The notes: a model not told the origin generated them from the sequence alone. A stretch of 64,000 bases of DNA from Candidatus Rifleibacteriota bacterium (GCA_012517355.1 JAAYVD010000074.1:1-64000), one strand, 5' to 3'; shown: positions 6,879-61,598, numbered from the stretch's first letter. A program made the numbers and translations.

Positions 6879-6887
6879 GAACTTGAG

Positions 6888-11817: not shown

Positions 11818-11824
11818 AGAGTCG

Positions 11825-15548: not shown

Positions 15549-15779
15549 ATGAAGACCGCGGCAGGGCCGCGAAAGCGGAAAGACGGCCGAGCGGGCGGCA
15601 ACGCCGTGGACCGGCTGGCCCGAGGTCGGAGCCGTTCCTTTGCCCTCCCGGATGGCCGCGCAACCCGTCCGATTCCTGCATCCCTGGGGAGCCCGCCGCC
15701 AGCCGGCCGGCTGGCCGCCGCCCGGACCCAGGCCCCATCGAAGCCGGAGCCGGTCATCCACAAGCCATGCCACCCCTGA
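15549..15779 (+). CDS. possible small basic protein
   Basis: A 76-codon open frame starting at ATG 15549, 18 bp after the 863-residue protein gene, and overlapping the next gene by 13 bp. The product is rich in Arg, Pro, Ala and Gly (MKTAAGPRKRKDGRAGGNAV) and lacks a recognisable fold. Only a weak GAGG precedes the start. It fills an otherwise empty 235-bp gap but could equally be a chance frame in GC-rich DNA. Confidence 0.25.
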   Translation: MKTAAGPRKRKDGRAGGNAVDRLARGRSRSFALPDGRATRPIPASLGSPPPAGRLAAARTQAPSKPEPVIHKPCHP

Positions 15780-17568: not shown

Positions 17569-19861
17569 ACCCTTCCCTTTCCTCGAGGATCGAGACGGCC
17601 ATCGGCGTCGGCTCGGAGGCCATGCCGGGGACGTAGAAGAAATCGGGAACGGTGCGGAACCCCGCCACCCGGTGGGCCAGGTGCGGCGTGGAGACCGCCA
17701 CCCCGCCGGCCAGGGCGACGCGCTGCCCCTTCTCCCACCGGATCAGGTCCACCGGCGAGCCGAGCCCCGGCCGGCAGGAGATGAGCTGCACGCCGATCTG
17801 GACGTCGTCACGCAGGGTGATCGGATCGCCCGTCAGGCTGACGAAGGTGAGCACCTGCTCGGGCTTCATGGTGTTGATCAGCGTGTTGAACCCGGCATCG
17901 ACGCAGAGGGGCCGCGCCGGGTCGCTCGGGGTGAACCCGCGGGTGATGGCCCCCAGCGAGATGGGGCCGTTCACCAGCACCACCCCGCCCCGCACGTCGG
18001 TGCCGTCGAAATCCTCCAGTTCGAGCGGGCCGTCGATGGCCACCACCCCGTCGACCCACAGGCGGCCCTGCGGCAGCCCCGCCCAGGTCTTGAACTCGTC
18101 CTGCGTGGTGAAGCAGCGGCTGATGCGGCCCAGCACCGTCGAGCCCGGGTCCGGACCGGGATCCGCGAAGGGCCTGAACCAGCGGGCCGTGAACTCCTCG
18201 AACGCGCAGGACAACGCGAGATGGTCGCGGCTGGCGAAATCGGCGGCGTGGATCTCCTTCGGTTCCCCCCGGGCATCGCGGTTGGCGGGCAGGATGCGGG
18301 CGGCCGGGATGGCGGCGAACGACCCGCCGCTTGACAGCGACCGGCTCATGTAATCGGCATACGTGCCGCGCGGCAGGCGGAAAGGGAAGCGCGTCCCATC
18401 CCAGGTCAGGCCGTCCTCGGGCAGGAAACCGGGGTCGTCGCGGAAGGGCAGCGGGATGCCGACCCCCGCGCAGCCGGGGAAGGTCCAGAGCGAGGCGATC
18501 AGGAACCGCTGGTAGACCCGGCCGAAGATCTGCCGCACCGGCGGCAGGTAGGGCACCTCCGGCGGGATGTACCGCTGGAAGTTGCGGCCCAGCAACTTGA
18601 CGGCTGCGGCGGGGGCCAGGTGCCGCCGCTGGCTGCGATAGGTGGCGAACCCCGGGTCGCCGGCCAGCAGGTAGTCCATGGTCAGCAGCGTGCCCGCGTA
18701 GGGGCCGCCATGGTCGTCGGCCAGTTCGAGGCCGAACCCGAGCAGGCCGAGCAACGCGTAGCTGTCGCGCACCTCGAGGGGCAGCTGCAGCGTGCGCAGC
18801 GAGAGCATCCGGCCCTCGGCGTCGGGGAAGACCGGCAGCGGCGTGAAGCTGGCCCCGTCGGGATTGATCGCCGGGAAGGTCTGGGGCGTGACGTGGAACA
18901 GCTCCGACATGTCCCCCTGCCGGTAGGTGGCCTCGCCGGCCAGGTTCAGCACGATCGGCCGGTCGGACCGCCCGAGGAAGACCTTGCCGTTGGCGTGCGC
19001 GTCGAAGGGGTTGGAGTTGTTGGGCATCAGATTCCAGGGTTTCCCCGCGACACCGGCGTAGCCGGGCTTGAGAGCATCGGGATGTTCCCCGTCCTGCACC
19101 TGCAGGATGTTGATGCCGTCGGCATCCCCGACGATGCTGCCCTGTTCGAGGTGCATCTGGTCGCAGAACAGGATGAACTCCCGCAGCACCGGGGTGAGCC
19201 GGGCCACGACCTTGAAGGGAACCCGCTCCTCCAGCCGGAAGGTGCGGCCCCGCAAGGCCAGCCGGCAGGTGACCGCGACGCAGCCCTCCTGTTCCTGCAC
19301 CTCGGCCGGCAGCGCCGCCACCCCCTCCGGGTAGGGCAACGGCCGGAAGTCGGTGAACCGCAACTCTGGCGGGCCCGCCAGGGTGGCCTGCAGTTCGGCC
19401 GCCAGCGCTTCGAGGCTCTGGCTCGGATGGTAGACCAGGTCGGGGGCCCCGCCGGTGACCGGCCGGACGAAACTGCGGACCAGGGCGGGGTCGCCGTTCT
19501 TGAGCCCGAGCCGGATCTGCGAGACGACGTCCTCGACGCAGGCCTCGAGCAGGTAGAAGGCGGTCTGGGTCTGGTCGGACACGGTCATCAGCTGCACCTG
19601 GCGGCTCATCCGGCGCGACAACCCGAACAACAGCAGGATCATCACCGACAGGATCCCGATCACCAGCAGGTAGACGCTGCCCCGGGCGGTTCCGGCGCGA
19701 GGCGCGAAACTCGCGTTTCGCGCCGCCATCCGTGGCGGCAAGGGGGCACTTCCGACCTCGTGTCGGTCGGCCCCCTTGCGATGCGCGAAACGGGCGTTTC
19801 GCGCCGCCATCCGTGGCGGCAAGGGGGCACTTCCGACCTCGTGTCGGTCGGGGATGGTCAT
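17549..19861 (-). CDS. large PilX-like pseudopilin-associated protein with two N-terminal 27-aa repeats
   Basis: 770 residues. ATG 19861 overlaps the stop of the HEAT-repeat gene (ATGA). Residues 5-31 and 32-58 are two tandem copies of a 27-residue sequence encoded by the 81-bp palindromic repeat. After them come GSVYLLVIGILSVMILLLFG, a PilX/GspK-type N-terminal membrane helix, and a long extracytoplasmic domain with no recognised motif that is much larger than in ordinary PilX. The insertion means this protein has a 58-residue cytoplasmic leader that a normal prepilin lacks. Operon context (pseudopilins downstream, HEAT protein upstream) and the paralogue at 54416 support a role in a pilus-like assembly. 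Confidence 0.78.
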   Translation of the reverse strand: MTIPDRHEVGSAPLPPRMAARNARFAHRKGADRHEVGSAPLPPRMAARNASFAPRAGTARGSVYLLVIGILSVMILLLFGLSRRMSRQVQLMTVSDQTQTAFYLLEACVEDVVSQIRLGLKNGDPALVRSFVRPVTGGAPDLVYHPSQSLEALAAELQATLAGPPELRFTDFRPLPYPEGVAALPAEVQEQEGCVAVTCRLALRGRTFRLEERVPFKVVARLTPVLREFILFCDQMHLEQGSIVGDADGINILQVQDGEHPDALKPGYAGVAGKPWNLMPNNSNPFDAHANGKVFLGRSDRPIVLNLAGEATYRQGDMSELFHVTPQTFPAINPDGASFTPLPVFPDAEGRMLSLRTLQLPLEVRDSYALLGLLGFGLELADDHGGPYAGTLLTMDYLLAGDPGFATYRSQRRHLAPAAAVKLLGRNFQRYIPPEVPYLPPVRQIFGRVYQRFLIASLWTFPGCAGVGIPLPFRDDPGFLPEDGLTWDGTRFPFRLPRGTYADYMSRSLSSGGSFAAIPAARILPANRDARGEPKEIHAADFASRDHLALSCAFEEFTARWFRPFADPGPDPGSTVLGRISRCFTTQDEFKTWAGLPQGRLWVDGVVAIDGPLELEDFDGTDVRGGVVLVNGPISLGAITRGFTPSDPARPLCVDAGFNTLINTMKPEQVLTFVSLTGDPITLRDDVQIGVQLISCRPGLGSPVDLIRWEKGQRVALAGGVAVSTPHLAHRVAGFRTVPDFFYVPGMASEPTPMAVSILEEREGYDFAVE
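19688..19849 (-). repeat. 81-bp palindromic repeat, two tandem copies (R1, R2)
   Basis: Two head-to-tail copies (19769-19849 and 19688-19768), period exactly 81 bp, in frame in the PilX-like gene. Each starts GACCGACACGAGGTCGG and contains a GCCGCCA/TGGCGGC hairpin, a GCGCGAAAC/GTTTCGCGC hairpin and, in R1, an outer CCCCCTTGC/GCAAGGGGG stem. R2 has lost the last arm. The encoded sequence starts DRHEVGSAPLPPRMAARNAR. Confidence 0.92.
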
Positions 19862-30577: not shown

Positions 30578-31459
30578 ATGGACCCCGCGCGCGGCACCGA
30601 CCGGCACGATGGCGGCAGTGGCCCCTGGCCGCCACCGATGGCTGGGCGAAACGACGGTTCCGCGCCTCGCCAGGGGGCCTTCCACCTCTACTGGCGACTG
30701 GTCGCCATCTCGATCCGCGCCCAGGCGCAGTATCCCGGTTCCCTGCTGCTGCTGTCGGCCGGCCACCTGGTCGTCACGCTGCTCGAGTTCCTGGGCGTCT
30801 GGGCCCTGTTCGACCGGTTCCGCCTGGTGCGCGGCTGGAGCCTGGCCGAGGTCGCCCTCTTCTACGGCCTGGTCAACCTGTCCTTCGCCCTCGCCGAGGC
30901 CGTCGGCCGCGGGTTCGACGCCTTCGACCGCCTGGTCCGCACCGGCGAGTTCGATGTCGTGCTGCTCCGACCCCGCTCCGAGGTCCTGCTGATCTGCGGA
31001 CAGGAACTGCGCCTGTCGCGGGCCGGGCGGTTCGCCCAAGGGCTGATCATTTTGGGGTGGGGAATGTCCTCGCTCGGCCTGGCCGGCCGGCCGGAGGTCT
31101 GGATGCGCCTCGCCTGGGCGGTGGCGGGCGGCACCGCCTTGTTCTGCGGCCTGTTCGTGCTGCAGGCGACCATCGCCTTCTGGACCGTCAACTCCCTCGA
31201 GGTCGTCAACACCGTCACCTACGGCGGGGTCGAGACGGCCCAGTTCCCCATCGACATCTATCCGTCGGCGGTGCGGGCCTTCTTCACCTGGGTGGTGCCG
31301 CTGGCCTCGCTGAACTACCTGCCCCTGCGCGGCCTGCTGCGAGGGGGTGATCCCGGGTGGGTCGGCTGGGCGGCCCCCCTGGCGGGCTTCCTGTTCCTGG
31401 CAGTCTCGTTGCGCCTGTGGCGGTTCGGCGTCCGCCACTACACTTCGACGGGCAGCTGA
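30578..31459 (+). CDS. ABC-2 family transporter permease 2 with N-terminal repeat insertion
   Basis: 293 residues, starting 1 bp after the first permease. Residues 8-34 are a 27-residue copy of the 81-bp palindromic repeat (DRHDGGSGPWPPPMAGRNDG onward); the permease proper begins at about residue 36 (YWRLVAISIRAQAQYPGSLL). Six membrane segments, the element LVRTGEFDVVLLRPRSEVLL, and VETAQFPIDIYPSAVRAFFT near the C-terminus are typical of the second DUF990-type subunit. The repeat only lengthens the cytoplasmic leader, so function may be intact. The last codons are followed by a possible degenerate repeat copy (31460-31535, weak). Confidence 0.88.
   Translation: MDPARGTDRHDGGSGPWPPPMAGRNDGSAPRQGAFHLYWRLVAISIRAQAQYPGSLLLLSAGHLVVTLLEFLGVWALFDRFRLVRGWSLAEVALFYGLVNLSFALAEAVGRGFDAFDRLVRTGEFDVVLLRPRSEVLLICGQELRLSRAGRFAQGLIILGWGMSSLGLAGRPEVWMRLAWAVAGGTALFCGLFVLQATIAFWTVNSLEVVNTVTYGGVETAQFPIDIYPSAVRAFFTWVVPLASLNYLPLRGLLRGGDPGWVGWAAPLAGFLFLAVSLRLWRFGVRHYTSTGS
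30599..30679 (+). repeat. 81-bp palindromic repeat, single copy (R6)
   Basis: Starts GACCGGCACGATGGCGG, contains GCCGCCACCGATGGC and ends CAGGGGGCC, giving 27 codons in the same frame as R1-R5. More diverged than R1, with weaker inner stems. Confidence 0.8.
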
Positions 31460-33045: not shown

Positions 33046-34155
33046 TCACGATGTTCGGGGGAGGGACAGGCGGCCGCGGTGGTTGGTGAGAAGGCCGTCA
33101 TCGACCAGGCGGTCGACCATCGCCTTCAGCCAGGCGTTGTCACGAACCGGAACGAACCCCGGGTCGATGCGGGGACCGAGGTCTCGGAGGGCGATGCCTT
33201 CCTCCTCGCCGGCCAGGCGGAGGATCCGACCACGGTAGATGCGGTCTGGGTGGGTTTTTCCGGCATGCCGTCGTTCGTTCGACCGCGGCACCGACCGCCG
33301 CGGCACGGCGACCCCGCCGGAACGGAAACGGGGTTCGGCAGGGCAGGCCGCCCGGAGCGGGCACCCGGGGCAAAGGGGGGTTTTGCGGCAGACCAGGCTC
33401 GCCAGGTCGAACAAGGCCTGGACGAGGTCGGCCGGCCGCGCCGCGCCGGCCAGGAGTCGTTGCAGGGCCGGACGCAGCCGGTCGTCCCCGGCCGGCAGGG
33501 GAAAGGGTTCGCCCAGCAGCAGCCGGCCCCCGGCCCGGCGGATGTTGGTGTCGACCGGCACCGTCCGCCGCCCGGTCGAGAACAGCGTCACCGCGGCCGC
33601 GGTGTAGGGGCCGATGCCCTTCAGGGCCCGCCAACCCTCTTCGGTGGCGGGAACGCCGTCACGCACCACCGCCCGGGCCACCCCCTGCAGCATGAGAGCC
33701 CGCCGGTTGTAGCCCAGCCCCGACCACTGCCGGATGACCTCGGCCGGCGGAGCCTCCGCCAGCGCCGTCCACCCGGGAAACCGTTCCAACCAACGCCGGT
33801 AGAAGGGAATCACACGGTCCACCTGCGTCTGCTGCAACATGATCTCGCTGACCAGGATGGCATAGGGGTCGGCCACGAATCCCGCTTCCGAAGCGGTCGG
33901 CCCCTTTGCGGTGCGCGAAACGGGCGTTGCGCGCCGCCCTCCCTGACGGCAAAGGGGCCCTCCCGACATCGTGTCGGTCGGGTCGGCGGGCGAGTGGTGG
34001 GTTCCGGACCGCCAGGGCAGGCGGCGCCCCTCGCGGTCGTACCAGGCGAGCAGGAGCCGGCTCACTGGCGAGACGCGAACCGGGCGTTCCGCCCCGCCGT
34101 CCGTGGCGGCAGGAGGGTGTGTCCGGAGACGCGTCGGTCGGGTCAGGGAAGGCAT
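33046..34155 (-). CDS. mutY: A/G-specific adenine glycosylase MutY with two in-frame repeat insertions
   Basis: 369 residues. It removes adenine mispaired with 8-oxoguanine. The core is clear: LLAWYDREGRRLPWR, SEIMLQQTQVDRVIPFYRRW (catalytic Glu), the helix-hairpin-helix GWRALKGIGPYTAAAV, VPVDTNIRRAGGR with the catalytic Asp, and the iron-sulfur cysteines CRKTPLCPGCPLRAAC. Two copies of the 81-bp repeat lie inside: one forms the N-terminus (residues 6-30), the other (near 59-86) sits between LPWR and DPYAILVSEI, where family members have only a few residues. Both keep the frame although read in different phases. There is no C-terminal NUDIX-like domain. Start uncertain, since no ribosome site precedes ATG 34155. 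Confidence 0.93.
   Translation of the reverse strand: MPSLTRPTRLRTHPPAATDGGAERPVRVSPVSRLLLAWYDREGRRLPWRSGTHHSPADPTDTMSGGPLCRQGGRRATPVSRTAKGPTASEAGFVADPYAILVSEIMLQQTQVDRVIPFYRRWLERFPGWTALAEAPPAEVIRQWSGLGYNRRALMLQGVARAVVRDGVPATEEGWRALKGIGPYTAAAVTLFSTGRRTVPVDTNIRRAGGRLLLGEPFPLPAGDDRLRPALQRLLAGAARPADLVQALFDLASLVCRKTPLCPGCPLRAACPAEPRFRSGGVAVPRRSVPRSNERRHAGKTHPDRIYRGRILRLAGEEEGIALRDLGPRIDPGFVPVRDNAWLKAMVDRLVDDGLLTNHRGRLSLPRTS
33899..33979 (-). repeat. 81-bp palindromic repeat inside mutY core (R7)
   Basis: Minus strand, starting GACCGACACGATGTCGG and ending GCAAAGGGGCC, exactly 81 bp. Outer stem CCCCTTTGC/GCAAAGGGG is perfect. Read in a different phase from R1-R6, encoding TDTMSGGPLCRQGGRRATPV and onward. 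Confidence 0.92.
34066..34139 (-). repeat. 81-bp palindromic repeat at the mutY N-terminus, 3-prime truncated (R8)
   Basis: Minus strand, starts GACCGACGCGTCTCCGG and keeps the GCCGCCA/TGGCGGC-type hairpin and the GGAAC/GTTCGC segment, but loses the last outer-stem arm. Read in the third possible phase. Confidence 0.75.
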
Positions 34156-40845: not shown

Positions 40846-41088
40846 CCCGGCCGCCACTCCCCTGCAGATCCGCCCCTCCGCCCCCATCCACCCGCCGGCC
40901 GCCCCCCGGCGCCCGCTTCCCCAGCTCCTTTTCGCTTTTCCATTTCGCTCATGCTTCCGGGGACCAGGGGGTGACTCCCTATCCGCCCTCCTCGGCGTCC
41001 ATCCGCGTCGATCCGCGGCTCCCTTTATCCCTTATCCCTCGCCTCAACCGCCGGGGCCGGCAGCGCCATTTTTCCGGCCGGAAGCAAA

Positions 41089-42587: not shown

Positions 42588-42634
42588 GCCGGGTGTCCAT
42601 GGTCTGGGGTCGCCCTGGGAGTCCTGAAAGCGGG

Positions 42635-45549: not shown

Positions 45550-48500
45550 CCCTGCCCGCCCGGCCCGACCGACCCGATGTCGGAAACACCCCTTTGCCGC
45601 CACGGATGGCGGCGCGAAACGCCCGTTTCGCACACCGCAAAGGGGCCGACCGACCCGAGACCGGGAGTGCCCCCGTGCCGCCACCCCTGGCCACGCGAAC
45701 CGCCCGTCTCCCGCACCACGCGGGGGTCGGCCAGCCCGAGGCCGGAAGGGCCATCTGGCCGCCACGGATGATCGGGCGAACCCCCCGTTCCGCTCCCCGC
45801 CGGGGGGCCGCCTCCCGGCTGGTCACCCAGGTGGTGATGGCCCTGGCCTTCTTCGCCGTTCCGCTGGTCTTCATCGGATTCGAGGCGTCCGCCCTGCGGG
45901 ATTCCCTCGCCGACGAGGTTGATACCCGCGAGATGGCTTCCCTGCTCGGTTCCCTCCGGACGATCAAAGACCGGCAATACCTCCCGGGAGCCTGCCAGAA
46001 CGCCTTCGCCGGGTGGTGCTCCCAGGCCGCGGCAGCCTCCTCGCCCCGGCAGGTCCTGGCCGAGATGCGCCGCCGCGTGCCCGCCGACCTCGGGTTGCCG
46101 ATGGAATTCGTCTTCCTCGGCCCGGACGGCCGCCAGGACCAGGAACTGTCCGACGTCTCCCTCCCCGGGGACATCGAGAGATTCCTGGAAGCCGACCTGG
46201 CCCGGCTGGAAGCGGGCAAGCCGGGCCCCTTCCGCTCGCGCCTCGCCCGCTACCAGGAGTTCTTCGGGCCATGGATCTACAGGCTGGAACGGGCCAAGCT
46301 GGTGACGGGGTTCTTCCAGGTCGGGGCCCAGGAGCGGCGACACCATCTCTACGTGTCTCCTCGCGTGGATTTCGGCCGGTTCCTGGTCTTCCTGGATCAT
46401 CCACCCGACTGGAACCTCCGGGGGGTTCGGCTCGAACTGGCCCGGCACCTGGCCCGGTTCCCCACCCATCGCGGAGGAATCCACCGGACCGATCAGGGAA
46501 GGGAGGACCTGCCGGACGCTCTGGGGGAAGGGTTCCCCTCCTGGTTCCAGGCAAGCCTCCATCTGGGCCCCTCCACCCGGCAGGCCATCCGGTCGGGAGA
46601 CTGGCTCTGGGCGCAGGTGCCCCTCGACCGGAAAACCCGGGTCATCCTGGGCCGCCCCGACACCTCCCGCCGGGACCTGGACCGGTTCCGCCACGGGCTT
46701 CTGGCGACGCTCACCGGGCTGTTTCTGGGGGCCGCGGCGGTCTTCTTCCGGTTGTCGGCCTCGCCCGAGGGCATCCCCTTCCGCCTGTCGACCCGCCTGT
46801 TCCTCCTGCTGGCCTATGTCGTGGGGCTTCCCCTGCTCGTCTTCTGGCTGTCGGCCCGGACCCTGGGCCGCGACCTCGCCGAGGTGCGGGAGCGGGAATG
46901 GCAGGCCCGGCAGGTCGCCGCCCTGGAGGAACTGGACCAGCGGTTCCAGGATTTCGTCGGCTCTTTGGAAGAGGCTTTGGTCCGCCGGTTCCAGCTGACC
47001 GCCACCGGGACGTCGGGGGAAACCGAGTTGCGGACCCGCCTGCAGGACGTGATCCGGGAGTTCGACCCCGCCCTGGCGGTGTATCTCGACGCCCAGGGCA
47101 AGGCCCGTTTCGAGAGCGGGGCCCCGTCTTTCAAGATGCCCCCCGGCCTGCAGAAGATCCTCTTCACCGCCTGTGCCGGGGTACTGGCCAGCCAGACCGC
47201 CCGCCCCCAACCCAGGGATGGTGACCTGTCCGCCGCGTTGGCCGAAGAGTCCGGGTTGAACCTCGAACTCCTGACCACCATCATGACCGAGCACCCCGAA
47301 CATCTCCTCGATCTCGACTTCATCGACCAGGATGTCGGGATCCTGCTGACCCCTGCCTCCGATCCCCAGGGGGAGATGCCGTTCGCGGTGGTGGTTGCCT
47401 GGGAACATGCCCGGCTCTGGCGTCTCTTTTTGGAACGCTTCCTGCCCCGTTTCCAGGCGGGACTTCCGGAAATGCGGCTGGCGGCCCGCTGGATCGTCGG
47501 CAAGAACATCCCCTGCCCGGCCGACTCCCCGCTGCTGCCCGTGGCCGACGACATCTGGGAGGGTTTCCGGGGCGCCCGCCGCCCGGTTTCCCTGTCGGTG
47601 CCCCTCGCCTCGTCCACCTGGCTCGTCACCGGGTATCGCGGCAATCACCTCCGGAACCTGCTTCTCCTGGCCGGTTCCCCGCCCGACGCCCGTCAGGCCC
47701 TGGATGCCGCCTTCCACCGCAGGATGGCCCTGATCGGACTGCTGTTGGCCCTGACCGGAGCCCTCATCGCCCGGCTGTTGTCGGGAACCTTCCTGCATCC
47801 CATCGGTGAACTGGCCCGGGGCGTGGCCGCCCTGACCCGACGGGATTTCTCCTGGCGCATCCCCCCCATCGGCCGGGACGAACTCGGCCGGCTGGGCGAG
47901 GCCTTCAACCAGATGCGCGAGTCGTTGCGCGACCTCGAACTGGCCCGGGTCCTGCAGGAACGCATCTACCCGACCGGCGTGACCTCCCTCGGCCAGGGCT
48001 GGGAGGTCTTCGGCGACTGCCGCTCCGCCAGCGAGGTGGGCGGCGACTTCTTCGATTTCCAGTCTTTGCCCGATGGCCGCTGGATCCTGGTCGTCGGGGA
48101 TGTCTCCGGCCACGGCGCCCCCTCCGCCCTCATCGTGGCCCTCGCCAAGGGACTGTTCGCCCACCCGCGCCAGGCCGACGACCCCGCCCGCATCCTCCAG
48201 GACGTCCAGGCGGTGTTCCGCCGCATCCTTCCCAAGCGGCGGATGATGATGACCTGCTTCGTGGCCGTCTTCGACCCGGTTTCCGGTGGCCTGTGCTACA
48301 GCAACGCCGGGCACAACCACCCCTTCCTGGTCAACCCGGCCGGCCACCTGTCACCCCTGCACACCCCGGGATTCCCACTCGGACTGGGCAAGGCTCGGAC
48401 CTACCAGTCGGCGGCCGCGACGGTGGACCCCGGGGGCCTGGTGTTCCTCTACACCGACGGCCTCGTCGAGGCCCTCGATCCGCAGGGAAACCCCCTCGGC

Positions 48501-48650: not shown

Positions 48651-48798
48651 CCGGCTGCCACCGGCCGCTTCCGGGAGACCGGAGAACCGGTGGGCAGGTC
48701 CCTGGCCAGGGAATTCCGGCAAAACGAGGGTTCCCTCACAGCTCCCCCCCTTCTTCCCTGGCCACCGGACCGATCCGCGAACCTCGGCACCGGTCTGC

Positions 48799-48836
48799 GG
48801 CCGCGATCCCGATGGACAGGTCGGGGATCCGCGGCC
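48799..48836. terminator. imperfect GC hairpin between convergent genes
   Basis: GGCCGCGATCCCGA (48799-48812) faces TCGGGGATCCGCGGCC (48821-48836), pairing fully apart from two single-base bulges, loop 8 nt. It lies 10 bp beyond the stop of the PstS-like gene on the minus strand and after the phosphatase on the plus strand. No T-tract. Confidence 0.45.
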
Positions 48837-48845
48837 CCCGGGGGG

Positions 48846-49655
48846 TCAGTCGAAGCTCAGCACCGGCAGCACGTATTTGCGGACGATGGCCTGCCCCTCG
48901 CGAGAGAAGACGAAATCGAGGAACTTCGCCAGGTCGGCGTTCTTGGGGTCATCCCGGTAGACGAGGGTGAACGGCCGGCCCAGGGGATACTGGCCCAGGC
49001 TCAGGGTCTCCAGCGAGGGCAGGATCCCGTCGATGGCCACGACGCGGGTCAGGCCACGGTCACCGGCCAGGGCCGCGAAAGTGATGGCGGCCGGATTGCT
49101 GGCGACGTACTCGATGTTCTCCTGGTGGGTGGGGAAGGCGAAGGCCGGCGTGGCCAGGGGCGCCCCCTCCATCACCACCTCGCGGAACTGGCCCATCACT
49201 CCGCCCTCGTCCCCCTGCCGGACCAGCGTGACGATGGGAAGGTCGGGGCCGCCGACCGCCTGCCAGTTGGTGACGGTGCCGGCGAAGATGTCCTTCACCT
49301 GCCCCAGGGTCAGGCTGGCCACCGGGTTCTGCCCGTTCACGTAGACCACCAGCGCATCGTAGCCGATGGGGCGGTTGGTCAGCCCGGAGTCCAGTTCCTC
49401 CTTCGTCAGCAGGCGCGACAGGCCGCCCAGCACCGCCTTGCCGTCCCGCGCCGCGACGAATCCCTGGTTCGAGCTGGTGGCACGGATCTCGCCGAAGGCG
49501 ATGCCCGAACTCGCCGTGAAGGCGGTGGCCAGTTCGGGCAACAGCGCCGTGCCGATCGAGGACGATCCCTCGTAGGAGAGCTGGGCGCCGGCGGCAATGG
49601 CCAGCAGCCAGAAGGAAAGGGCCAGAGCGATGACGGAAGAACGGGGGAATGACAT
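48846..49655 (-). CDS. PstS-like phosphate/oxyanion-binding protein
   Basis: 269 residues from ATG 49655 (GGAGG 7 bp upstream) with signal peptide SVIALALSFWLLAIAAGAQL. The mature protein opens LSYEGSSSIGTALLPELATA, the PBP-like domain start of PstS, followed by ATSSNQGFVAARDGKAVLGG, LTLGQVKDIFAGTVTNWQAV, PIVTLVRQGDEGGVMGQFRE and LGQYPLGRPFTLVYRDDPKN. These match the PBP_like_2 family of phosphate-binding proteins. No pstCAB genes adjoin it, so it may be an orphan binding protein serving sensing or a distant transporter. Its upstream region carries a head-to-head pair of 81-bp repeats. Confidence 0.88.
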   Translation of the reverse strand: MSFPRSSVIALALSFWLLAIAAGAQLSYEGSSSIGTALLPELATAFTASSGIAFGEIRATSSNQGFVAARDGKAVLGGLSRLLTKEELDSGLTNRPIGYDALVVYVNGQNPVASLTLGQVKDIFAGTVTNWQAVGGPDLPIVTLVRQGDEGGVMGQFREVVMEGAPLATPAFAFPTHQENIEYVASNPAAITFAALAGDRGLTRVVAIDGILPSLETLSLGQYPLGRPFTLVYRDDPKNADLAKFLDFVFSREGQAIVRKYVLPVLSFD

Positions 49656-49758
49656 GGTATGCCTCCAGTGGTGGATGGCCCCCTGACCCGGCGCGGCCCG
49701 GACGTTCGGCGCCACCGGCGGGGACGGCCAGGGGGTGTGGCCGGCCTCATCGCCAACG

Positions 49759-49839
49759 GGCTCCCTGTCGTGCACGAAACGGGGGTATCGCGCCGCCGTC
49801 CATGGCACCACGGGGGCCGGGCGGACCTCGTGCCGGGCC
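49759..49839 (-). repeat. 81-bp palindromic repeat, intergenic (R9)
   Basis: Minus-strand orientation, diverged, exactly 81 bp with the start abutting the start of R10. Lies about 100 bp upstream of the PstS-like gene. Confidence 0.8.
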
Positions 49840-49920
49840 GACCGACACGAGGTCGGAAGGGCTTCCCCTTTGCCGCCTCGGAGGGCGGTGCGCAACGCGA
49901 GTTGCGCGCTTCGCGAAGGG
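49840..49920 (+). repeat. 81-bp palindromic repeat, intergenic (R10)
   Basis: Plus orientation, starts GACCGACACGAGGTCGG, exactly 81 bp to the next GAC. It carries a compensatory change: the third hairpin is GCGCAAC/GTTGCGC instead of GCGAAAC/GTTTCGC. Ends 20 bp before the STAS-like gene's stop. Confidence 0.9.
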
Positions 49921-49939
49921 GACGCGGCGACGGGGCGGT

Positions 49940-50323
49940 TCACGAGGCCTCTTCGGGGCCGGTCAGCCATTCGATGGCCGCCTCGGGTTCGTAGAAGATG
50001 AAGAACTTGACCTTGTACCGGTCGGACTGGGGCGCCAGGACCTTCGAGTATTTGCCCGGCGTGGGGTTCTTCTCGCCGATCAGCAGCGCGTAGCGACGAC
50101 CCAGCACGTGCCGGTGGGTGCCGAAGAAGGCGGCCAGGCTGGCCAGGTCGCTGGGGGAGCGTTTGGCCATGGTCTCCCGGGCATCGATCAGGACATTCAG
50201 CCCGTTGCGGAAGGCCGCGTCGTGAAAGGCCGCGTCGAACCCCTCGCGGGTCTCCTCGACCCCCTGGTGACCGGACATCCGGAACCAGATGAACCCCTGT
50301 TCGAACGTGTAGGTGATGGCCAT
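49940..50323 (-). CDS. STAS/SpoIIAA-like protein
   Basis: 127 residues. Alternating strands and helices fit the SpoIIAA-like (STAS-like) fold: ITYTFEQGFIWFRMSGHQGV, then NVLIDARETMAKRSPSDLAS (strand, then an acidic loop at the usual phosphorylation-loop position), HRHVLGRRYALLIGEKNPT, and VKFFIFYEPEAAIEWLTG at the end. This pattern is typical of small bacterial proteins in phosphatase/kinase partner-switching or of lipid-binding relatives. The SpoIIE phosphatase 1.3 kb away makes a functional link plausible. Start at ATG 50323. Confidence 0.7.
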   Translation of the reverse strand: MAITYTFEQGFIWFRMSGHQGVEETREGFDAAFHDAAFRNGLNVLIDARETMAKRSPSDLASLAAFFGTHRHVLGRRYALLIGEKNPTPGKYSKVLAPQSDRYKVKFFIFYEPEAAIEWLTGPEEAS

Positions 50324-50431
50324 CTCTCACTCCTGCCCGCCGGCCGGTCCGCCCCGCCGACGCGCCGCCCCATCATAGCAGAAGCGGCCCGCCGGAGGAA
50401 GCCCGCGGCCGGTCGCCGGGCGCGCCCGCTC

Positions 50432-51274
50432 CTACTCCCGCAGGCGGCCGGCGGCGTAGGGGCCGACGTAGAGAGCCTGTGGGCGCGACATGTTCAGGTC
50501 GCCGAGGCCGGCGTAGCAATCGAAGATGTAGCCGTTGATCACCAGCGCGTCCGAGCCATACCGCCAGGGGTTCCCGACCGGCCGGCTGGGATGGTTGACC
50601 ACCCGGTGGGCGTCGTAGCCGTGGGCCCGCATGATGCCGATGACGTGGGTCATCATGACGTAGGCCTTGTCGCGGTCGTCGCCTTCGACGAACAGGTCGG
50701 GGTGGTGCTCCTTGACCCAGGTCGCCGTCGAGGTGATGGCCGCCCGGTCGCTCGAGGTGTCGATGGGCACGTCGGCATACCCGGGAAGCATGGGCACGGT
50801 CTCCAGGGCCTCGCCCGGCTCCTTCGGAGGCTGGCCGCCGCCCGACGACGGGGGTCGGTCCCCGTCGGGGCCGGGTTCGTCACCGGCGGCCGGCGGCAGG
50901 TCGGTGGTCGGCTTGCCCTCGGAACCCCACCAGTAGGCGGGATTCTCGCCACCGGCGCGGCAGATGACATCGACCCATTCCCAGCCGATCTCGGTCAGGA
51001 CGAGGATGCGGTCGCCCTTGATGGCGCGGATGCGCAGCCCGGCGTCACGCAGGTCCTGGCGCATGCTCATCAGCAACCGTTCGGCCGACACCTTGTCGTG
51101 GACGCTGTCGAGCGGGTAGGTGCGGGCCACGCGGGCGAACAGGTACTTGGGGGTCTTGTGATCGGGATTGTCGAGCTTGCGCTGGTCGAACCCCTCGAGC
51201 GGGGCATCCGCCCAGGCCACTCCACAACCGACACACAACCCGAGCACCAGCAGCCACCTGATCACGTTGCGCAT
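50432..51274 (-). CDS. exported hypothetical protein
   Basis: 280 residues from ATG 51274 (GGAGGTGCCGAGGA upstream). Signal peptide NVIRWLLVLGLCVGCGVAWA. The mature part holds a helical/acidic region (LFARVARTYPLDSVHDKVSA), a Gly/Pro-rich linker (residues 120-150) and a C-terminal domain with VPIDTSSDRAAITSTATWVK, AYVMMTHVIGIMRAHGYDAH and GSDALVINGYIFDCYAGLGD. The last has the look of a transglutaminase-like or cysteine-peptidase His/Asp/Cys site but the order is unclear. Divergent from the HEAT-repeat operon at 51388. Not recognised. Confidence 0.68.
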   Translation of the reverse strand: MRNVIRWLLVLGLCVGCGVAWADAPLEGFDQRKLDNPDHKTPKYLFARVARTYPLDSVHDKVSAERLLMSMRQDLRDAGLRIRAIKGDRILVLTEIGWEWVDVICRAGGENPAYWWGSEGKPTTDLPPAAGDEPGPDGDRPPSSGGGQPPKEPGEALETVPMLPGYADVPIDTSSDRAAITSTATWVKEHHPDLFVEGDDRDKAYVMMTHVIGIMRAHGYDAHRVVNHPSRPVGNPWRYGSDALVINGYIFDCYAGLGDLNMSRPQALYVGPYAAGRLRE

Positions 51275-51355
51275 TCCTCGGCACCTCCGCATGGATTACC
51301 CCCATTGTAGCAGGAACCGGTGGCCGGGGGAACGGGCCATCCGGGAAGGGTGTGG

Positions 51356-51361
51356 TATAGT
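51356..51361 (+). promoter_or_regulatory. possible extended -10 element of the HEAT/pseudopilin operon
   Basis: TGGTATAGT, with TATAGT at 51356-51361, 26 bp before ATG 51388. No convincing -35 box. Confidence 0.35.
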
Positions 51362-51387
51362 GTCAACAGATCATTCAGGGGAGTACC

Positions 51388-54291
51388 ATGGAAGAGGTCA
51401 CCAAGCCCGGGCCCGAGAGCCCCCCGCTGCCCCCCTCGCTCGACCTGAACCTCTGGCTGGCGTTGAGCCTCGCCTCCCGCGAGGAGGCGGAACGCCGCCT
51501 GGCCCTCGACGAGATCGGCTTCCAGGGCCTGGCCGACGCGTTCGCCGACCAGCTGCAGCGCCTCGCCGACCATGACCCCGCCGAGGCCTGCCGCAACTTC
51601 GCCACCCGCCTGCTGGCCGGCCGCCAGAAGGCGAAGGCCGACCGCACCGTCGAGAAGATCGAACTGTCTCCCGAGCGCACCAAGGCCCTGCTCGAGATGG
51701 GCGAAGACACCCTGCAGCGCGTCGTCCAGCTCTCGCTGCGCCGGGCGCCCTCCGCCGAGATCCTCGACACCTGGCGCGCCCACCTGCTCGGCGAGGAGAA
51801 CCCCGAGGTCATCGGGGTCGGACTGACGCTGCTGGCCCGCTTCGGACGGCCCGACGACGCCGGGCTCGCCCTTCCCTTCAGCACCCATGCCTCGACCGGC
51901 GTGGTGCGGGCCGCCATCGACCTGTTGCACGCGAAGAACCCCGACCGTTTCAAGGAGACCATCGTCCAGTTCCTCACCGCCGACGACCTCGAGGTGCGGC
52001 TGCACACCATCCGCAAGCTGCGCACCTTCGACCCGCGCGAGGCGCAGGTCTACCTGCGCTCCCTGCTGTCGGCCCGCAACCCGTTCATCCGCCAGCGCGC
52101 CCTGCGCGAACTGCTGCTGGTGCCATTCAACGAGAGCGAAGCCCTGTATCTGGCCTACCTGGCGGCCGAACCGCTGCCGCTGCTGCTGGTGCTGGCCGGC
52201 TCGGCCGTCGCCATGAACCCGGCCCCCGAACTGCCCCAGAAGCTGTACGACGTCTACTTCGCCGCCCGCGACACCCGCGCCCACATCCTGCAGCTGGTGA
52301 TCGCGCAGGTGCTGGCCGCCATCAAGGCTTCCGGCATCCTGCAGGAGCCCGTCGAGACCTACCTCGAGACCCTCAAGGCCACCCTGCAGAAACGCAAACT
52401 CTGGATCACCACCCGGATCGCGCTGAAAGACCTCGACCACGCCGAGCCCGATACGCGGCTGGCCGCCATCGACAAGCTGCGGCAGGCCCTCCAGTTCCCC
52501 AAGGTGCGCGAGGCCCTCGAGGCTCGCGACGCCGTCGAGACCGTCGAGGAGGTACGCGAGGCCCTGGCCCAGGCCCTCGGCCGCGAGAAGGAGTCGTTCA
52601 CCCCCGCCGCCTTCCGCGCCAAGGTGAAAGACGGCAGTTTCTACGCGCTCGAGCCGAAGGTGCAGAAGAAGTTCGTCGCCACCATCACCGACGAGGGCTC
52701 CTTCCTCGAGGTCCGCGACATCATCGGCATCGTGGTGGTGGCCGACCTCGACCGCGGCGTCCTGCTGCAGCTGCTCGACCGGATCGCGGCCCACTCCAAA
52801 TCCTGGGATCCCAAGTGCCTGTACCGGTTCCTCAAGGACGAGGACCCCGGTGTCCTGGCCGCCGCCCTGCGGGCCGTCGGCAAACTCGACCTCGACGCCA
52901 TCTCCTACGAGATCCCCAACCTGATGCGGCACGACGACTTCCGGGTCAAGATGGCCGCCCTCGAACTCTACCTGGTCTCCGACAAGGCCAGCGCCCTGCA
53001 GTACCTGGTGGGCATGCTGAAGGCCCCCCAGGTCAAGGTGCGCCGCAACGGCCTGTCGCTGCTGGCCACCGTCGACTACCCCTCGGCCGAGGCCATCCTG
53101 CGCGACTACTTCCCGGTCGAGAAAAACCTCGAGGCGAAGGTGCAGGCCGGCTTCATCCTGGCCGCCAACCCCACCCTCGAAGGCTTCCAACTGCTCTACG
53201 CCGCCTGCCACGACGACAAGGGCGACATCCTGCCCAGCTTCCAGGACCTGTGGGACGCCGCCCTGGAAGGCGCCGTCCCCCTGCTCGCCCCCGACGCCGC
53301 CACGCTTCTGGCCACCTGCCAGGGCACCCGGCCGCAGGCCACCCAGGCCGCCACCGCCGCCGCCGACCAGCCTTCCTACGCCTTCAAGAAGGTCACCGCC
53401 GCCACCAGGAAGAACCTGTTCGCGGAACAGGACGCCCAGGCCGCCCAAGGGGCCGCCGCCGACCTGCGGCTGCCCGAACCCCAGGATGCCCTCGAGAAGG
53501 CCGCCGGTTTCCTCGACCGCCACCGCATGCCCCTGGCCGCGGCCGCCGTCGTCCTGCTCGCCGCCGGCCTGTGGTGGGCGGCGGGCGACCGCCTCCTCGG
53601 CCCGTCCGACGCGGGACCGACCCCCGGAGTCAGGCACGAGAGCCGGGCCAGCCGCATGGAAGAGGGGGCGAAGGACGTCCCGGCGGTGGTCAGCGGCCAG
53701 CGGGGCGGATCCAGCCAGTTCATGCGCGGCCGCAGCTACGGCGGCACCATGCGTTCGATGGCGGCCGAACGGCAATCGATCTCGCAGGAGTTCCACCGCA
53801 AGAACAAGGAGGCGCTCCAGGAGACCCTGATGGCGATGTCGACCGACCCCAATTACAAAGGGTATGCCGAGTTCTACCTGAACGAGAACTGCTCGAAAGG
53901 CATGAAAGCCCTCGACGAGGGGAACCTGAAAGAGGCGCGCGACTACCTGGTGAAGGCGCTGGTCGATCCCTCCGTCTCGGAAGAGGCGCGGGTCATCGTC
54001 TGCCAGGGGCTGATGGGCGTCGGCTGGGAGATCGGCGACAAGGATTCCATCCAGATGTCCATGGAGGCTTTGCTGGCCACCATCCCCGAGAACGAGCTCC
54101 CCAAGGGATATGATAAAATGAGGATGAAGGAAGCCTTCGCCGGCCTCGAACGGTTCAACGAGGTCACGCCCGAGCAGTTCAAACTGATCATGCAGAAGAT
54201 GGCCACCCAGTATCCCGGCAAGGTGCCCCCCGAGTATCAGGCGAAGATGCTGGAAGGGTTCAAACAGATGCAGAACCGTTTCAGGAAATGA
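51388..54291 (+). CDS. HEAT-repeat membrane protein, first gene of the second pseudopilin operon
   Basis: 967 residues. Residues 130-650 are helical HEAT-type pairs (GVVRAAIDLLHAKNPDRFKE; LEVRLHTIRKLRTFDPREAQ; DFRVKMAALELYLVSDKASA). A single membrane helix (RMPLAAAAVVLLAAGLWWAA, near 712) is followed by a helical external part (KNKEALQETLMAMSTDPNYK; EGNLKEARDYLVKALVDPSV) with TPR-like spacing. ATG 51388 follows GGGGAG. It resembles the gene at 19858 in architecture (HEAT, one membrane helix, small outer domain) and in neighbours. I infer a paralogue serving a second pseudopilus-like complex. Confidence 0.82.
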   Translation: MEEVTKPGPESPPLPPSLDLNLWLALSLASREEAERRLALDEIGFQGLADAFADQLQRLADHDPAEACRNFATRLLAGRQKAKADRTVEKIELSPERTKALLEMGEDTLQRVVQLSLRRAPSAEILDTWRAHLLGEENPEVIGVGLTLLARFGRPDDAGLALPFSTHASTGVVRAAIDLLHAKNPDRFKETIVQFLTADDLEVRLHTIRKLRTFDPREAQVYLRSLLSARNPFIRQRALRELLLVPFNESEALYLAYLAAEPLPLLLVLAGSAVAMNPAPELPQKLYDVYFAARDTRAHILQLVIAQVLAAIKASGILQEPVETYLETLKATLQKRKLWITTRIALKDLDHAEPDTRLAAIDKLRQALQFPKVREALEARDAVETVEEVREALAQALGREKESFTPAAFRAKVKDGSFYALEPKVQKKFVATITDEGSFLEVRDIIGIVVVADLDRGVLLQLLDRIAAHSKSWDPKCLYRFLKDEDPGVLAAALRAVGKLDLDAISYEIPNLMRHDDFRVKMAALELYLVSDKASALQYLVGMLKAPQVKVRRNGLSLLATVDYPSAEAILRDYFPVEKNLEAKVQAGFILAANPTLEGFQLLYAACHDDKGDILPSFQDLWDAALEGAVPLLAPDAATLLATCQGTRPQATQAATAAADQPSYAFKKVTAATRKNLFAEQDAQAAQGAAADLRLPEPQDALEKAAGFLDRHRMPLAAAAVVLLAAGLWWAAGDRLLGPSDAGPTPGVRHESRASRMEEGAKDVPAVVSGQRGGSSQFMRGRSYGGTMRSMAAERQSISQEFHRKNKEALQETLMAMSTDPNYKGYAEFYLNENCSKGMKALDEGNLKEARDYLVKALVDPSVSEEARVIVCQGLMGVGWEIGDKDSIQMSMEALLATIPENELPKGYDKMRMKEAFAGLERFNEVTPEQFKLIMQKMATQYPGKVPPEYQAKMLEGFKQMQNRFRK

Positions 54292-54316
54292 CGCGTCTTC
54301 TGTACAGGAACGACCC

Positions 54317-54397
54317 GACCGACACGAGGTCGGCCATACCCCTTTGCCGCCACGGAAGGCGACGCGGAACCCCCGTTCCGCGCCCGGCAGGGGGCCC
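54317..54397 (+). repeat. 81-bp palindromic repeat, intergenic (R11)
   Basis: Starts GACCGACACGAGGTCGG, exactly 81 bp to the next GAC, ending just before the ribosome site of the next gene. The third hairpin is CGCGGAAC/GTTCCGCG, a second compensatory variant. Confidence 0.9.
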
Positions 54398-54415
54398 GAC
54401 CTGGAGGTGAACGAC

Positions 54416-57103
54416 ATGGAATGGCAACTTCGGACCCGCACCCGTCAGGGCTCTGCCTTTCTCATCGTCCTGGCGGTGGCCGCCGTGCTCATCGTCATCG
54501 CCCAGACGCTGACCGAGACCGGCACCGCCACCCGGCGGCTGACCGTCCGCTCGGGCAACGACCAGAAGGCGATCGACTGCGCCGAGGCGGCCACCAATCT
54601 CACCTACCGCCTCATCGCCGAGGACATGAACGACCCCCACATGATCTACGACCTCATCAGCTTCAAGAAGGTCGACACCGAGAGCTGGTTCTGGAAGTTC
54701 CGGCTGCCGCAGCTGATGGGCGGGGCGAACGTCGATCCCGTGTCGTTCAAGAACGACAGCATCTCGCACGCCGAAACCTCGGGCAACGGGGTCGGCCTCG
54801 AGTTCAACCTCGGCCCCGAGATGCTCGCCAAGCTTCGCAAGGAGTATACCAACCGCGACTTCGCCGATCTCGAGGAGCTCTACCGCGACATGGGCGGCGA
54901 AGTCAGCATCAAAAGCGAGGCCAGCATCAAGAAGGTGTTCGGCATCCTTCCCAAGAACAACACCTACACCATCCCCGGCATCACCTTCGACATGACCGAG
55001 GCCGAAGAGAACGTCGACCTCAACCTCGGGAACTTCCTCAACTCGATCATGAGCGACAAGGAGTTCAAGATCGACATCACGAAGCAGCTGATCGGCTTCA
55101 TGCCCGACATCAACTTCGGCGACGTCGTCTACAACGTCATCAAGAACATCAACATCAACCTCGCCCTCTACCCGGTCGCCATCCCCATCCCCGTCGGCCG
55201 CCTGATCGGCGCCCTCCTCAAGGGCATGGCCAGCAAGCTGGGCAAGGACCTCACGCTGAAGGGCTTTTTGGAGGACACCCTCCTGAAGGACCTGAAGATC
55301 GAGGTCGACCTCACCGATTTCAAGAATTCCATCCGCGACAAGGTGATGGGCATCTTTCCCGACGAGATCAAAACGCTGGCGGGCACCATCGACTGGGGGG
55401 TGACCGTCGAGAAGGTGGGCATCTTCGAGGTCAAGACCACCGTCGAGTACCAGCCCCAGGGCGCGGCGGGTCCCAAGATCCGCAAGGTACTGTTCACCCA
55501 GCGCGACTTCCGCGTCGCCGACATCCAACCGATCGCCCCCGATTACACCTTCTTCGTGGCCAACACCAAGCTCCTGTTCGAGGACCCCGACGCCGAGAAC
55601 GAAGGCGGTTTCCAGGGCAACGCCCCGATCGACTGGAGCGCCGGCATGGGCTCGCTCATCTGCCACAACATCACCTTCTTCGACGTCTCGCTGTTCAACA
55701 AGCTGAAGACCTTCTTCGACGCGGTGACCCATCTCGACATCGAGAAGGTCGCCAACGGCTTCTTCTTCCCCGGGCGGGTTCGGGTCAACAACACCAACGA
55801 GATGGTGGTGCGGCTCAACTTCGGCCTGCTCGACTTTCTGGGCAGTTCCTACACCTTCATGGACGCCCTGAAGGGGTGCGAGATCGCCGCCCTGCTGATC
55901 AACAACAAGGACAAGAACAAGCACCGCGAAAAAGACGGCAACAACCTCAAGGAGCCCGACCCTCCCGAGCACAAGTTCATGCCCACCATGGGTGAGAGCC
56001 TCTACGGCCTGAGCATCGAGGGCGTGCCGCCCCTCGGCGGGTGGGTGGCGTTGTTCAACATCATCGAGGGCTACCTCGAGAAAGGCACCGCGGGCACCTT
56101 CAACGCCAGCGACTTCATGACCGTGCCGTTCGAGGCGCTGCAGGTGGCGCACTTCGACTGGCCCTGGCTGACCGACAAGTTCATGTGGATCCCGGTTCCC
56201 AACTTCTACAACAAGACCTACTTCTTCGGCGACTTCCACTGCGAGTTCCCGCTGTCGTTCCGCGTCGAGGGCAACCTGTGGAAGAAGTTCTCGCGCGTCA
56301 AGATGCCCATGATCCGGCTCTGGATCCCGCTCAACTGGCTGTTCGGCTGCCCCAACGTCGACATCACCCTGCCCCCGCTGCCTTTCCAGTCGAACGTCGT
56401 CGAGCCCTACGGGTTCTGCTCGATGCCCCCCCTCGAAAAGGAGAGCGGCGAGGTCGATGCCGAGCGCATGAAGACCGAGTGGGACGGCAACAACCCCAAG
56501 AACCTGCCGACCAACGTCTACTCGCCCATGCAGTATCTGAAGAAGGCCAGCTACTATTACGCCACCACCGCCGACTTCTCGAAGGACATCGAGAACCGCA
56601 GCACCGAGATGGACATCCCCGGCGTCGGCAAGAAGATGGTCTTCAACTGCGACGGCGTGACCTTCGTCGAATGCACCGACGGCCAGGGCCTGTTCTTCCG
56701 CCACGAACTGTACGTGGCCGGCCGGGGCATGATCGTGGCCGCCGGCAACATCCATCTCAAGAGCATCCGGCGCGTCGACCGCCCCGGCGAGGCCCCCACC
56801 ATGCTGTCGATCATCGCCCGCAACGGGTCGATCGTCAACAACGGCAAGAACGTCGTCGAAGCCTGCCTGTACGGCGACCGCGGCCTGCAGAACCCCTTCT
56901 ACGGCAGCCTCCGCATCTACGGCAACCTGGTGGTCAACCAGTTCAACCGCGAGGAATGCCAGGGCCAGGTCCACATCCATTTCGAGTCGAACCGCACCCA
57001 CAGCTCGCTGATGTCCTACTTCAAGGACGTGGCCAAGTTCGACCCGACCCGCTACCACACCACGTTCAGCAAGAAATGGCGGGCCTATGAATTCCAGAAG
57101 TGA
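54416..57103 (+). CDS. large PilX-like pseudopilin-associated protein
   Basis: 895 residues from ATG 54416 (GGAGGTGAACGAC upstream). The N-terminus QGSAFLIVLAVAAVLIVIAQ is a PilX/GspK-type membrane helix without a perfect prepilin site (Gly, then Ser-Ala-Phe). The remainder is extracytoplasmic, very Asp/Asn/Lys-rich, with several hydrophobic patches (VALYPVAIPIPVGRLIGALL; MDALKGCEIAALLINNKD) and a C-terminal region (GRGMIVAAGNIHLKSIRRVD; LRIYGNLVVNQFNREECQGQ) resembling a right-handed beta-helix or the C-terminal part of PilX-like fibre proteins. The paralogue at 17549 occupies the same operon position. Function beyond pilus-like assembly not known. Confidence 0.78.
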   Translation: MEWQLRTRTRQGSAFLIVLAVAAVLIVIAQTLTETGTATRRLTVRSGNDQKAIDCAEAATNLTYRLIAEDMNDPHMIYDLISFKKVDTESWFWKFRLPQLMGGANVDPVSFKNDSISHAETSGNGVGLEFNLGPEMLAKLRKEYTNRDFADLEELYRDMGGEVSIKSEASIKKVFGILPKNNTYTIPGITFDMTEAEENVDLNLGNFLNSIMSDKEFKIDITKQLIGFMPDINFGDVVYNVIKNININLALYPVAIPIPVGRLIGALLKGMASKLGKDLTLKGFLEDTLLKDLKIEVDLTDFKNSIRDKVMGIFPDEIKTLAGTIDWGVTVEKVGIFEVKTTVEYQPQGAAGPKIRKVLFTQRDFRVADIQPIAPDYTFFVANTKLLFEDPDAENEGGFQGNAPIDWSAGMGSLICHNITFFDVSLFNKLKTFFDAVTHLDIEKVANGFFFPGRVRVNNTNEMVVRLNFGLLDFLGSSYTFMDALKGCEIAALLINNKDKNKHREKDGNNLKEPDPPEHKFMPTMGESLYGLSIEGVPPLGGWVALFNIIEGYLEKGTAGTFNASDFMTVPFEALQVAHFDWPWLTDKFMWIPVPNFYNKTYFFGDFHCEFPLSFRVEGNLWKKFSRVKMPMIRLWIPLNWLFGCPNVDITLPPLPFQSNVVEPYGFCSMPPLEKESGEVDAERMKTEWDGNNPKNLPTNVYSPMQYLKKASYYYATTADFSKDIENRSTEMDIPGVGKKMVFNCDGVTFVECTDGQGLFFRHELYVAGRGMIVAAGNIHLKSIRRVDRPGEAPTMLSIIARNGSIVNNGKNVVEACLYGDRGLQNPFYGSLRIYGNLVVNQFNREECQGQVHIHFESNRTHSSLMSYFKDVAKFDPTRYHTTFSKKWRAYEFQK

Positions 57104-61384: not shown

Positions 61385-61559
61385 CAGGGCAAACGCAACC
61401 CCGAAACCTGCATGGTCAGCAGAGACGCTCGGCCGGCGGGCCCGCGACACGGCCGCCCCGCCGGCCGGACGCGCCGCGTTCGGCCGGCGGACGAAACGGG
61501 TCCAGGGGCCTGTGGCCCCTGGCGAGGTGGTGGGGAGGAGCGGAGTTCCTCCCGCTCTG
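61385..61559 (+). repeat. 175-bp interspersed repeat, copy 2
   Basis: Closely similar to 42412-42587, including the perfectly kept CCAGGGGCC/GGCCCCTGG hairpin and the GGAGGAGCGGAGTTCCTCC region. As with copy 1 it ends about 40 bp upstream of a promoter -35 box. Confidence 0.85.
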
Positions 61560-61598
61560 CCAGCGTTTCCCAGGCTGGCGTTCCCCCTGCCGCGTTCC

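What the first reader, a model, noticed from the sequence alone, without database searches (positions are those of the whole stretch)
49840..54397. Compensatory changes support a folded RNA or cruciform for the 81-bp repeat
The consensus contains a small CCGAC/GTCGG hairpin, an outer CCCCCTTGC/GCAAGGGGG stem, and within it two hairpins, GCCGCCA/TGGCGGC and GCGAAAC/GTTTCGC. In R10 the last becomes GCGCAAC/GTTGCGC and in R11 CGCGGAAC/GTTCCGCG; in both, the two arms changed together. Paired change in non-coding copies argues that the structure is under selection, as for an element recognised by a transposase-like or processing enzyme, or for a stable RNA.
Basis: seen in the sequence. Interest (0 to 1): 0.78.

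Follow-up and report, generated by a model that had tools for sequence, protein, structure and literature searches.

The report
Palindromic repeat spreading through genes, too
A strongly folding 81-letter DNA repeat has spread to hundreds of places in the genome of an uncultured Ozemobacteraceae bacterium, between genes and also in frame inside genes; the fold is real, but the paired changes said to prove selection on its last hairpin occur no more often than chance.

Summary
The fold is really there: a CCGAC/GTCGG hairpin, then an outer stem enclosing two hairpins (consensus -44 kcal/mol, z -4.8), and R10 and R11 do carry the paired changes. The inference fails. In 280 distinct copies from the same genome, doubly changed but still paired cells in the GCGAAAC/GTTTCGC hairpin match shuffles once copies are split by age (0 vs 0.4; 29 vs 27.9). 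At the cited pair, R10's type occurs 3 times (1.7 expected) and R11's 4 times (4.0 expected). One-sided changes give G-U and A-C equally (330 each), so neither RNA strand is favoured. Only the middle of the outer stem covaries, largely between subfamilies. The repeat is a non-autonomous mobile palindrome: an estimated 600 copies, often in 81-bp head-to-tail arrays, with 84- and 60-nt relatives, in 2 of 3 genomes searched of its genus. R11 is an insertion of net length exactly 81 bp relative to two congeners. Not all copies are non-coding: at least 19 lie in frame inside 13 genes, as Rickettsia palindromic elements do. Copies then decay without detectable selection on the fold. The mobilising enzyme is unidentified; orientation follows GC skew, which hints at single-strand transposition.

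The parts
15612..15693 (+). degraded copy of the 81-bp repeat, intergenic
   Evidence: nhmmer E 2.5e-6
19687..19770 (-). copy 2 of a two-unit 81-bp array; its 3' end is broken (GCGCCGGAA); intergenic or N-terminal to the 17549-19729 gene
19766..19851 (-). near-consensus copy 1 of the same array
   Evidence: 97% identical to the consensus
30597..30682 (+). copy read in frame at the N-terminus of an ABC-permease-like ORF (30578-31459): MDPARG-TDRHDGGSGPWPPPMAGRNDGSAPRQGA-FHLYW...
   Evidence: coding status at the N-terminus not independently tested (no orthologue found)
33896..33981 (-). copy, intergenic
34058..34140 (-). diverged copy, intergenic
45565..45650 (+). unit 1 of a three-unit head-to-tail array, period 81
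45647..45730 (+). unit 2 of the array, diverged
45728..45810 (+). unit 3 of the array, diverged
49674..49749 (-). very degraded copy
   Evidence: nhmmer E 8e-4
49756..49837 (-). degraded copy, opposite orientation to R10 and abutting it
   Evidence: nhmmer E 1e-10
49838..49923 (+). R10 of the finding; 84-nt subtype with GGGCTTCCCC linker; hairpin GCGCAAC/GTTGCGC. Intergenic; the block is absent from the syntenic gap of two congeneric genomes
54315..54398 (+). R11 of the finding; hairpin CGCGGAAC/GTTCCGCG. Intergenic, just before the ribosome-binding site of the 54416 ATG; the gap is 124 nt here and 43 nt in both congeners

Best explanation
It is a non-autonomous mobile palindromic element of the REP/RPE kind, confined in these searches to two genomes of one Ozemobacteraceae genus. 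The unit is an 81-nt block (84-nt and 60-nt relatives): a constant 5' hairpin CCGAC(CGACACGAN)GTCGG, a 5-nt linker, then a large stem carrying one (60-mer) or two (81-mer) hairpins. Shown: hundreds of dispersed copies; head-to-tail arrays; insertion of net length exactly 81 bp at one site empty in two relatives; subfamilies in which the outer stem has a different sequence but still pairs; in-frame placement inside genes. Inferred: the hairpins are what an unidentified enzyme recognises on single-stranded DNA, so structure is preserved in the copies that still move; once inserted, copies decay without detectable selection on the fold. Because the units are multiples of three and their consensuses have no stop in any frame, insertion into permissive loops of proteins can be tolerated.
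For: 336 copies in 1.6 Mb fetched; spacings 81 (56 times) and 84 (13 times); 317 head motifs genome-wide against 0 for the reversed control pattern. In the genus, own genome and G002 have it, G001 does not; 2 of 57 relatives. Exact 81-nt gap difference at R11 against both congeners; G002 holds a copy where G000 has none. The 60-mer keeps head and inner hairpin but swaps the outer stem, CCCCTTTGC/GCAAAGGGG to GGGCCGCGG/CCGCGGACCC; outer-stem covariation in young 81-mers. Decay: chance-level compensation in the last hairpin and G-U equal to A-C. At least 19 copies in 13 genes with codon signal on both sides, e.g. the DegT aminotransferase loop. Strand bias 94:50 against gene-corrected GC3 skew, p = 3e-4.
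Against: No transposase gene is flanked by the repeat. The one Y1 transposase gene (C109) has no copy within about 6 kb and appears to have its own flanking repeats. No target-site duplication or terminal inverted repeats were found. In-gene counts depend on a home-made gene caller. The skew-to-replication link is assumed, not shown. The exact 81-bp insertion was measured at one site only.
Confidence: 0.78

Rival explanations
1. Each copy is a functional structured RNA (or mRNA-processing or stability element) whose fold is under selection.
For: Strong predicted fold; stem positions diverge less than others, 0.137 vs 0.245; covariation in the outer stem.
Against: No excess compensation in the last hairpin once copies are split by age, and G-U equals A-C on the given strand; RNAalifold on 80 copies does not recover the fold (covariation term -0.28); no Rfam match; no enrichment between convergent genes and only weak orientation preference relative to codirectional genes (65:54). 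Lower stem divergence can come from subfamily differences in the linker and loops.
Confidence: 0.07
2. The repeat is moved in trans by the genome's single Y1 (REP-associated-like) tyrosine transposase, i.e. it is a REP-type element of that enzyme.
For: The Y1 gene is present in both repeat-bearing genomes of the genus and absent from the one without repeats; no TSD, terminal hairpins and strand bias as for single-strand transposition.
Against: The gene is not flanked by this repeat but by GAGTTCCGGGGACATGATACC-type repeats, a separate family, resembling the TIR-flanked transposases described in PMC3733652; its NCBIfam score is under the cut-off, 64 vs 80; the co-distribution rests on three genomes.
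Confidence: 0.2
3. The paired changes in R10 and R11 come from quasipalindrome correction (template switching that copies one arm onto the other), without selection.
For: Would give paired changes without RNA-strand bias, as seen.
Against: Predicts an excess of perfect doubles in the cited hairpin among older copies; none is seen, 29 vs 27.9. Coincidence already explains R10 and R11.
Confidence: 0.05
4. The arrays are a recombination or cassette site (attC-like) or CRISPR-like array rather than a dispersed mobile repeat.
For: Hairpin-rich repeat of similar length; exact periodicity.
Against: Most copies are single and dispersed; array units follow each other with no spacer; the GTTTCGC arm does not fit the attC core GTTRRRY by direct reading.
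Confidence: 0.02

Closest known systems
Rickettsia palindromic elements (RPE)
   Same: Dispersed palindromic repeats found between genes and in frame inside unrelated protein genes, adding a peptide (described in PMC10969869, PMC2229807).
   Different: 81/84/60 nt rather than 105-146 bp, GC-rich, forms head-to-tail arrays, different phylum; no sequence comparison with RPE families was made.
REP / BIME elements (GTAG and CGTC superfamilies)
   Same: High-copy palindromes, mostly intergenic, some inside genes; CGTC REPs likewise lack a dedicated flanking transposase (PMC3733652).
   Different: REPs are 20-40 bp with an unpaired GTAG or CGTC tag; this unit is 81 nt with three hairpins and no such tag seen, and arrays are direct, not mainly opposed dimers.
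IS200/IS605-type single-strand transposition (works like)
   Same: No TSD, no TIR, hairpins at the ends, a preferred strand relative to GC skew.
   Different: No transposase gene associated with the repeat; orientation relative to replication only inferred.
[quoted passage not shown] 2005, known here only from its citation in PMC2229807)
   Same: Palindromic repeats that can be read as protein.
   Different: Archaeal; not compared in sequence here.

Membership tests
Rickettsia palindromic element (as a kind) | palindromic repeat dispersed in many copies | tested here: met
   336 copies in 1.6 Mb; fold
Rickettsia palindromic element (as a kind) | in-frame insertion in protein-coding genes | tested here: met
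   19 copies in 13 genes
Rickettsia palindromic element (as a kind) | length 105-146 bp, terminal inverted repeat | tested here: not met
   81/84/60 nt units; no matching flanking ends. So: works like an RPE, not filed as one
Rickettsia palindromic element (as a kind) | sequence similarity to a named RPE family | not tested
REP (GTAG/CGTC) | 20-40 bp palindrome with unpaired GTAG or CGTC tag | tested here: not met
   consensus ends are CCGACC... and ...GGGGCCNWCC
REP (RAYT-associated) | RAYT gene flanked by the repeat | tested here: not met
MITE of a DDE transposon | terminal inverted repeats and target-site duplication | tested here: not met
   no excess of direct or inverted matches between the two flanks in 138 single copies; net gain exactly 81 nt at R11
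IS200/IS605-derived non-autonomous element | mobilised by a Y1 HUH transposase on single-stranded DNA | tested here: inconclusive
   strand bias and co-distribution of Y1_Tnp in three congeners, but no physical link
Structured non-coding RNA | covariation supporting each helix, strand-specific G-U tolerance | tested here: not met
   outer stem only
Structured non-coding RNA | match to a known RNA family | tested here: not met
   Rfam scan of window 45000-55000, no match at E up to 1

The most novel reading that the evidence does not exclude
A previously undescribed modular mobile palindrome: a constant recognition hairpin joined to exchangeable stem-loops of codon-multiple length (60, 81, 84 nt) whose consensuses are stop-free in all six frames, so that it can colonise genes as well as gaps, moved by an enzyme not yet identified.
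Probability: 0.3. Interest if true: 0.7.

Novelty: new variant of a known kind. Interest (0 to 1): 0.52.

Why it matters
In-frame palindromic repeats are best known from Rickettsia, with scattered cases elsewhere; finding them in quantity in a large (7.1 Mb) genome of a distant, uncultured phylum lets one ask how selfish DNA adds peptides to proteins where the host is not a reduced parasite. It also gives a caution: with hundreds of neutrally decaying copies of a palindrome, a couple of matched arm changes are expected by chance, and a shuffle or strand test is needed before claiming selected structure.

Tried and rejected
A tree-based simulation null for covariation gave scores far above the real data and was dropped as badly calibrated; column shuffles, age strata, the G-U/A-C test and the independent pair-counting tool were used instead. 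RNAalifold on 80 copies returned a weak, different fold because decayed copies break pairs. Global alignments of empty sites were uninformative; junctions were read by hand. A search for a longer autonomous element through shared flanks found only other repeat families. Six-frame openness is not strong evidence by itself: 22% of dinucleotide shuffles of the 81-mer and 20% of intergenic 81-mers also pass. The DegT loop is of variable length across the genus, so it shows tolerance of an insert, not a clean empty site. No close orthologues of the L125, L038 and L031 proteins were found. One head-like 23-nt match in a Clostridia MAG has no element behind it. No match in viral contigs. attC and CRISPR were considered and rejected.

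Full report
WHAT WAS CLAIMED AND WHAT IS THERE. The finding describes R10 (49838-49923) and R11 (54315-54398), two copies of an 81-bp repeat, and says that matched changes in both arms of the GCGAAAC/GTTTCGC hairpin show that the fold is selected. The sequences and stems are as described. The consensus folds at -44.2 kcal/mol (z -4.8) on the strand shown and -44.3 (z -3.8) on the other; R10 and R11 fold alike.

THE FAMILY. The window lies in a 7.1-Mb, 184-contig genome. A profile search of 1.6 Mb of that genome (mostly regions chosen because they held copies) gives 336 copies; neighbours on the same strand are spaced 81 nt (56 times) or 84 nt (13 times). The 5' hairpin occurs 317 times genome-wide at up to one mismatch; the reversed control pattern never does. 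About 172 of those heads lie in the fetched part, so scaling gives roughly 600 copies (inference). Contigs C64 and C30 end inside arrays. Among 57 genomes searched only the own genome and G002, both of one genus, have it; G001 of the same genus does not. The matching G002 contigs are titled Candidatus Ozemobacteraceae.

COVARIATION. 280 distinct, nearly full-length copies were aligned to a sequence-only profile. For the cited hairpin, cells changed on both sides and still paired number 29 against 20.6 +- 4.2 in shuffles. Split by age this vanishes: 0 vs 0.4 in copies at least 87% identical to consensus, 29 vs 27.9 in older ones; the pooled excess is what mixing young and old copies produces. 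At the cited pair the R10 type occurs 3 times (1.7 expected) and the R11 type 4 times (4.0 expected). The outer stem does exceed chance: 108 vs 68.6, mainly one pair (T-A or C-G) that separates subfamilies; without it 51 vs 37.5, p = 0.006. The independent counting tool on 80 gap-free copies agrees: the outer stem has 4 pairs with double changes, the cited hairpin 0 of 9. RNA selection should tolerate G-U more than A-C on the functional strand; across all stems both are 330. So the fold belongs to the source copies; individual copies show no detectable selection on it.

MOBILITY. At R11 the gap between the two conserved genes is 124 nt here and 43 nt in both G001 and G002: a difference of exactly 81 (the window's ATG is at 54416, so one search's printed 125 is one too many). 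The R10 block is likewise absent from both. Conversely G002 holds a copy plus a 60-mer where G000 has 32 nt. Single copies begin CCGACC and end CCNWCC; the flanks show no target duplication or inverted repeat. Using third-codon GC skew corrected for gene direction, the strand shown lies on the C-rich side 94 times and on the other 50 times (p = 3e-4). If the G-rich strand is the leading one, as is usual, the complement lies on the lagging-strand template, the pattern of IS200/IS605 transposition (established knowledge; inference here).

MODULES. A 60-nt relative shares the head, linker and inner GCCA-cGGA-TGGC hairpin but has the outer stem GGGCCGCGG/CCGCGGACCC and lacks the last hairpin; it occurs alone and in mixed arrays with the 81-mer in G000, and in G002. 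Individual copies in L157 and L163 pair with yet other stem sequences (read by eye).

INSIDE GENES. A simple codon-usage gene caller gives 85% coding sequence; 210 of 304 copies overlap genes by less than 20%, so genes are strongly avoided. Yet 71 copies lie well inside called genes, and for 19 copies in 13 genes the codon signal is good on both sides in the same frame. Examples: a DegT aminotransferase whose two conserved halves match ArnB on either side of the insert; another genus (G003) has a much shorter loop there, while G001 and G002 have long loops of other sequence, so this is a permissive site. Others: inserts in a PEP-synthase-like protein, a three-unit insert in an N-acylglucosamine 2-epimerase-like protein, an ankyrin protein, a glucoamylase-family protein. 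Some inserts fall between domains, and a few called genes may be fusions of neighbours. The 81-, 84- and 60-nt consensuses have no stop in any of six frames, though base composition alone makes this only mildly unusual.

WHO MOVES IT. The genome has one Y1 transposase gene; G002 has one and G001 none. It has no 81-mer nearby and appears flanked by CCGGGGACATGATACC-type repeats of another family, as in the TIR-flanked transposases of PMC3733652. The mover is unknown.

COMPARISON. It works like Rickettsia palindromic elements and like intragenic REPs (PMC10969869, PMC2229807, PMC3733652) but fails defining features of each: length, tag, associated RAYT. The paper searches returned no description of such repeats in Riflebacteria; only open-licence PMC papers are held there.

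Noticed in passing
L023:2556-2727, L029:17585-17753, L010:3529-3697 and some 25 other loci: A second dispersed palindromic family of about 170 bp (GGGGCTTTGCCCCTTCACCCCACCAGGGCCGATGGCCCTGGACCC...) with at least 27 mutual matches in the fetched DNA.
   Followed up: no
window 24376-24581; L039:11769-12117; L107:1539-1699: A third dispersed family (GGAATTTCGGGGACACATGACC... GCATTTCGACAGAAACCTCGAGG...) with MITE-like ends; its GGGGACAC motif resembles repeats known to flank Y1 transposases.
   Followed up: partly
L069:1501-1827 (own genome C109): The only Y1 (REP-associated-like) transposase gene found in the genome, apparently flanked by inverted GAGTTCCGGGGACATGATACC repeats.
   Followed up: partly
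window 42412-42617 and 61385-61589: Two related stretches of about 200 nt (76-81% identical), 19 kb apart; possibly a further repeat family.
   Followed up: no
window 40614-40877: Tandem array of a 17-bp unit (CAGCCACCCGCCTGCGC) next to coding sequence.
   Followed up: no
window 6812-6898 and 11751-11837: Two nearly identical 87-nt stretches that look like parts of tRNA genes (GGTTCGACCCCGTC motif).
   Followed up: no
L119:1-103 and L151:1-150: Contig C29 of G000 and contig C204 of G002 both begin inside a 60-mer array with heads at the same offsets (25 and 85); probably an assembly effect of arrays.
   Followed up: no
L114:14945-16231 compared with L200 and L201: The DegT aminotransferase of this genus has a loop after DACHALGATW that varies widely in length and sequence; in G000 it is an old copy of the 81-mer.
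   Followed up: yes
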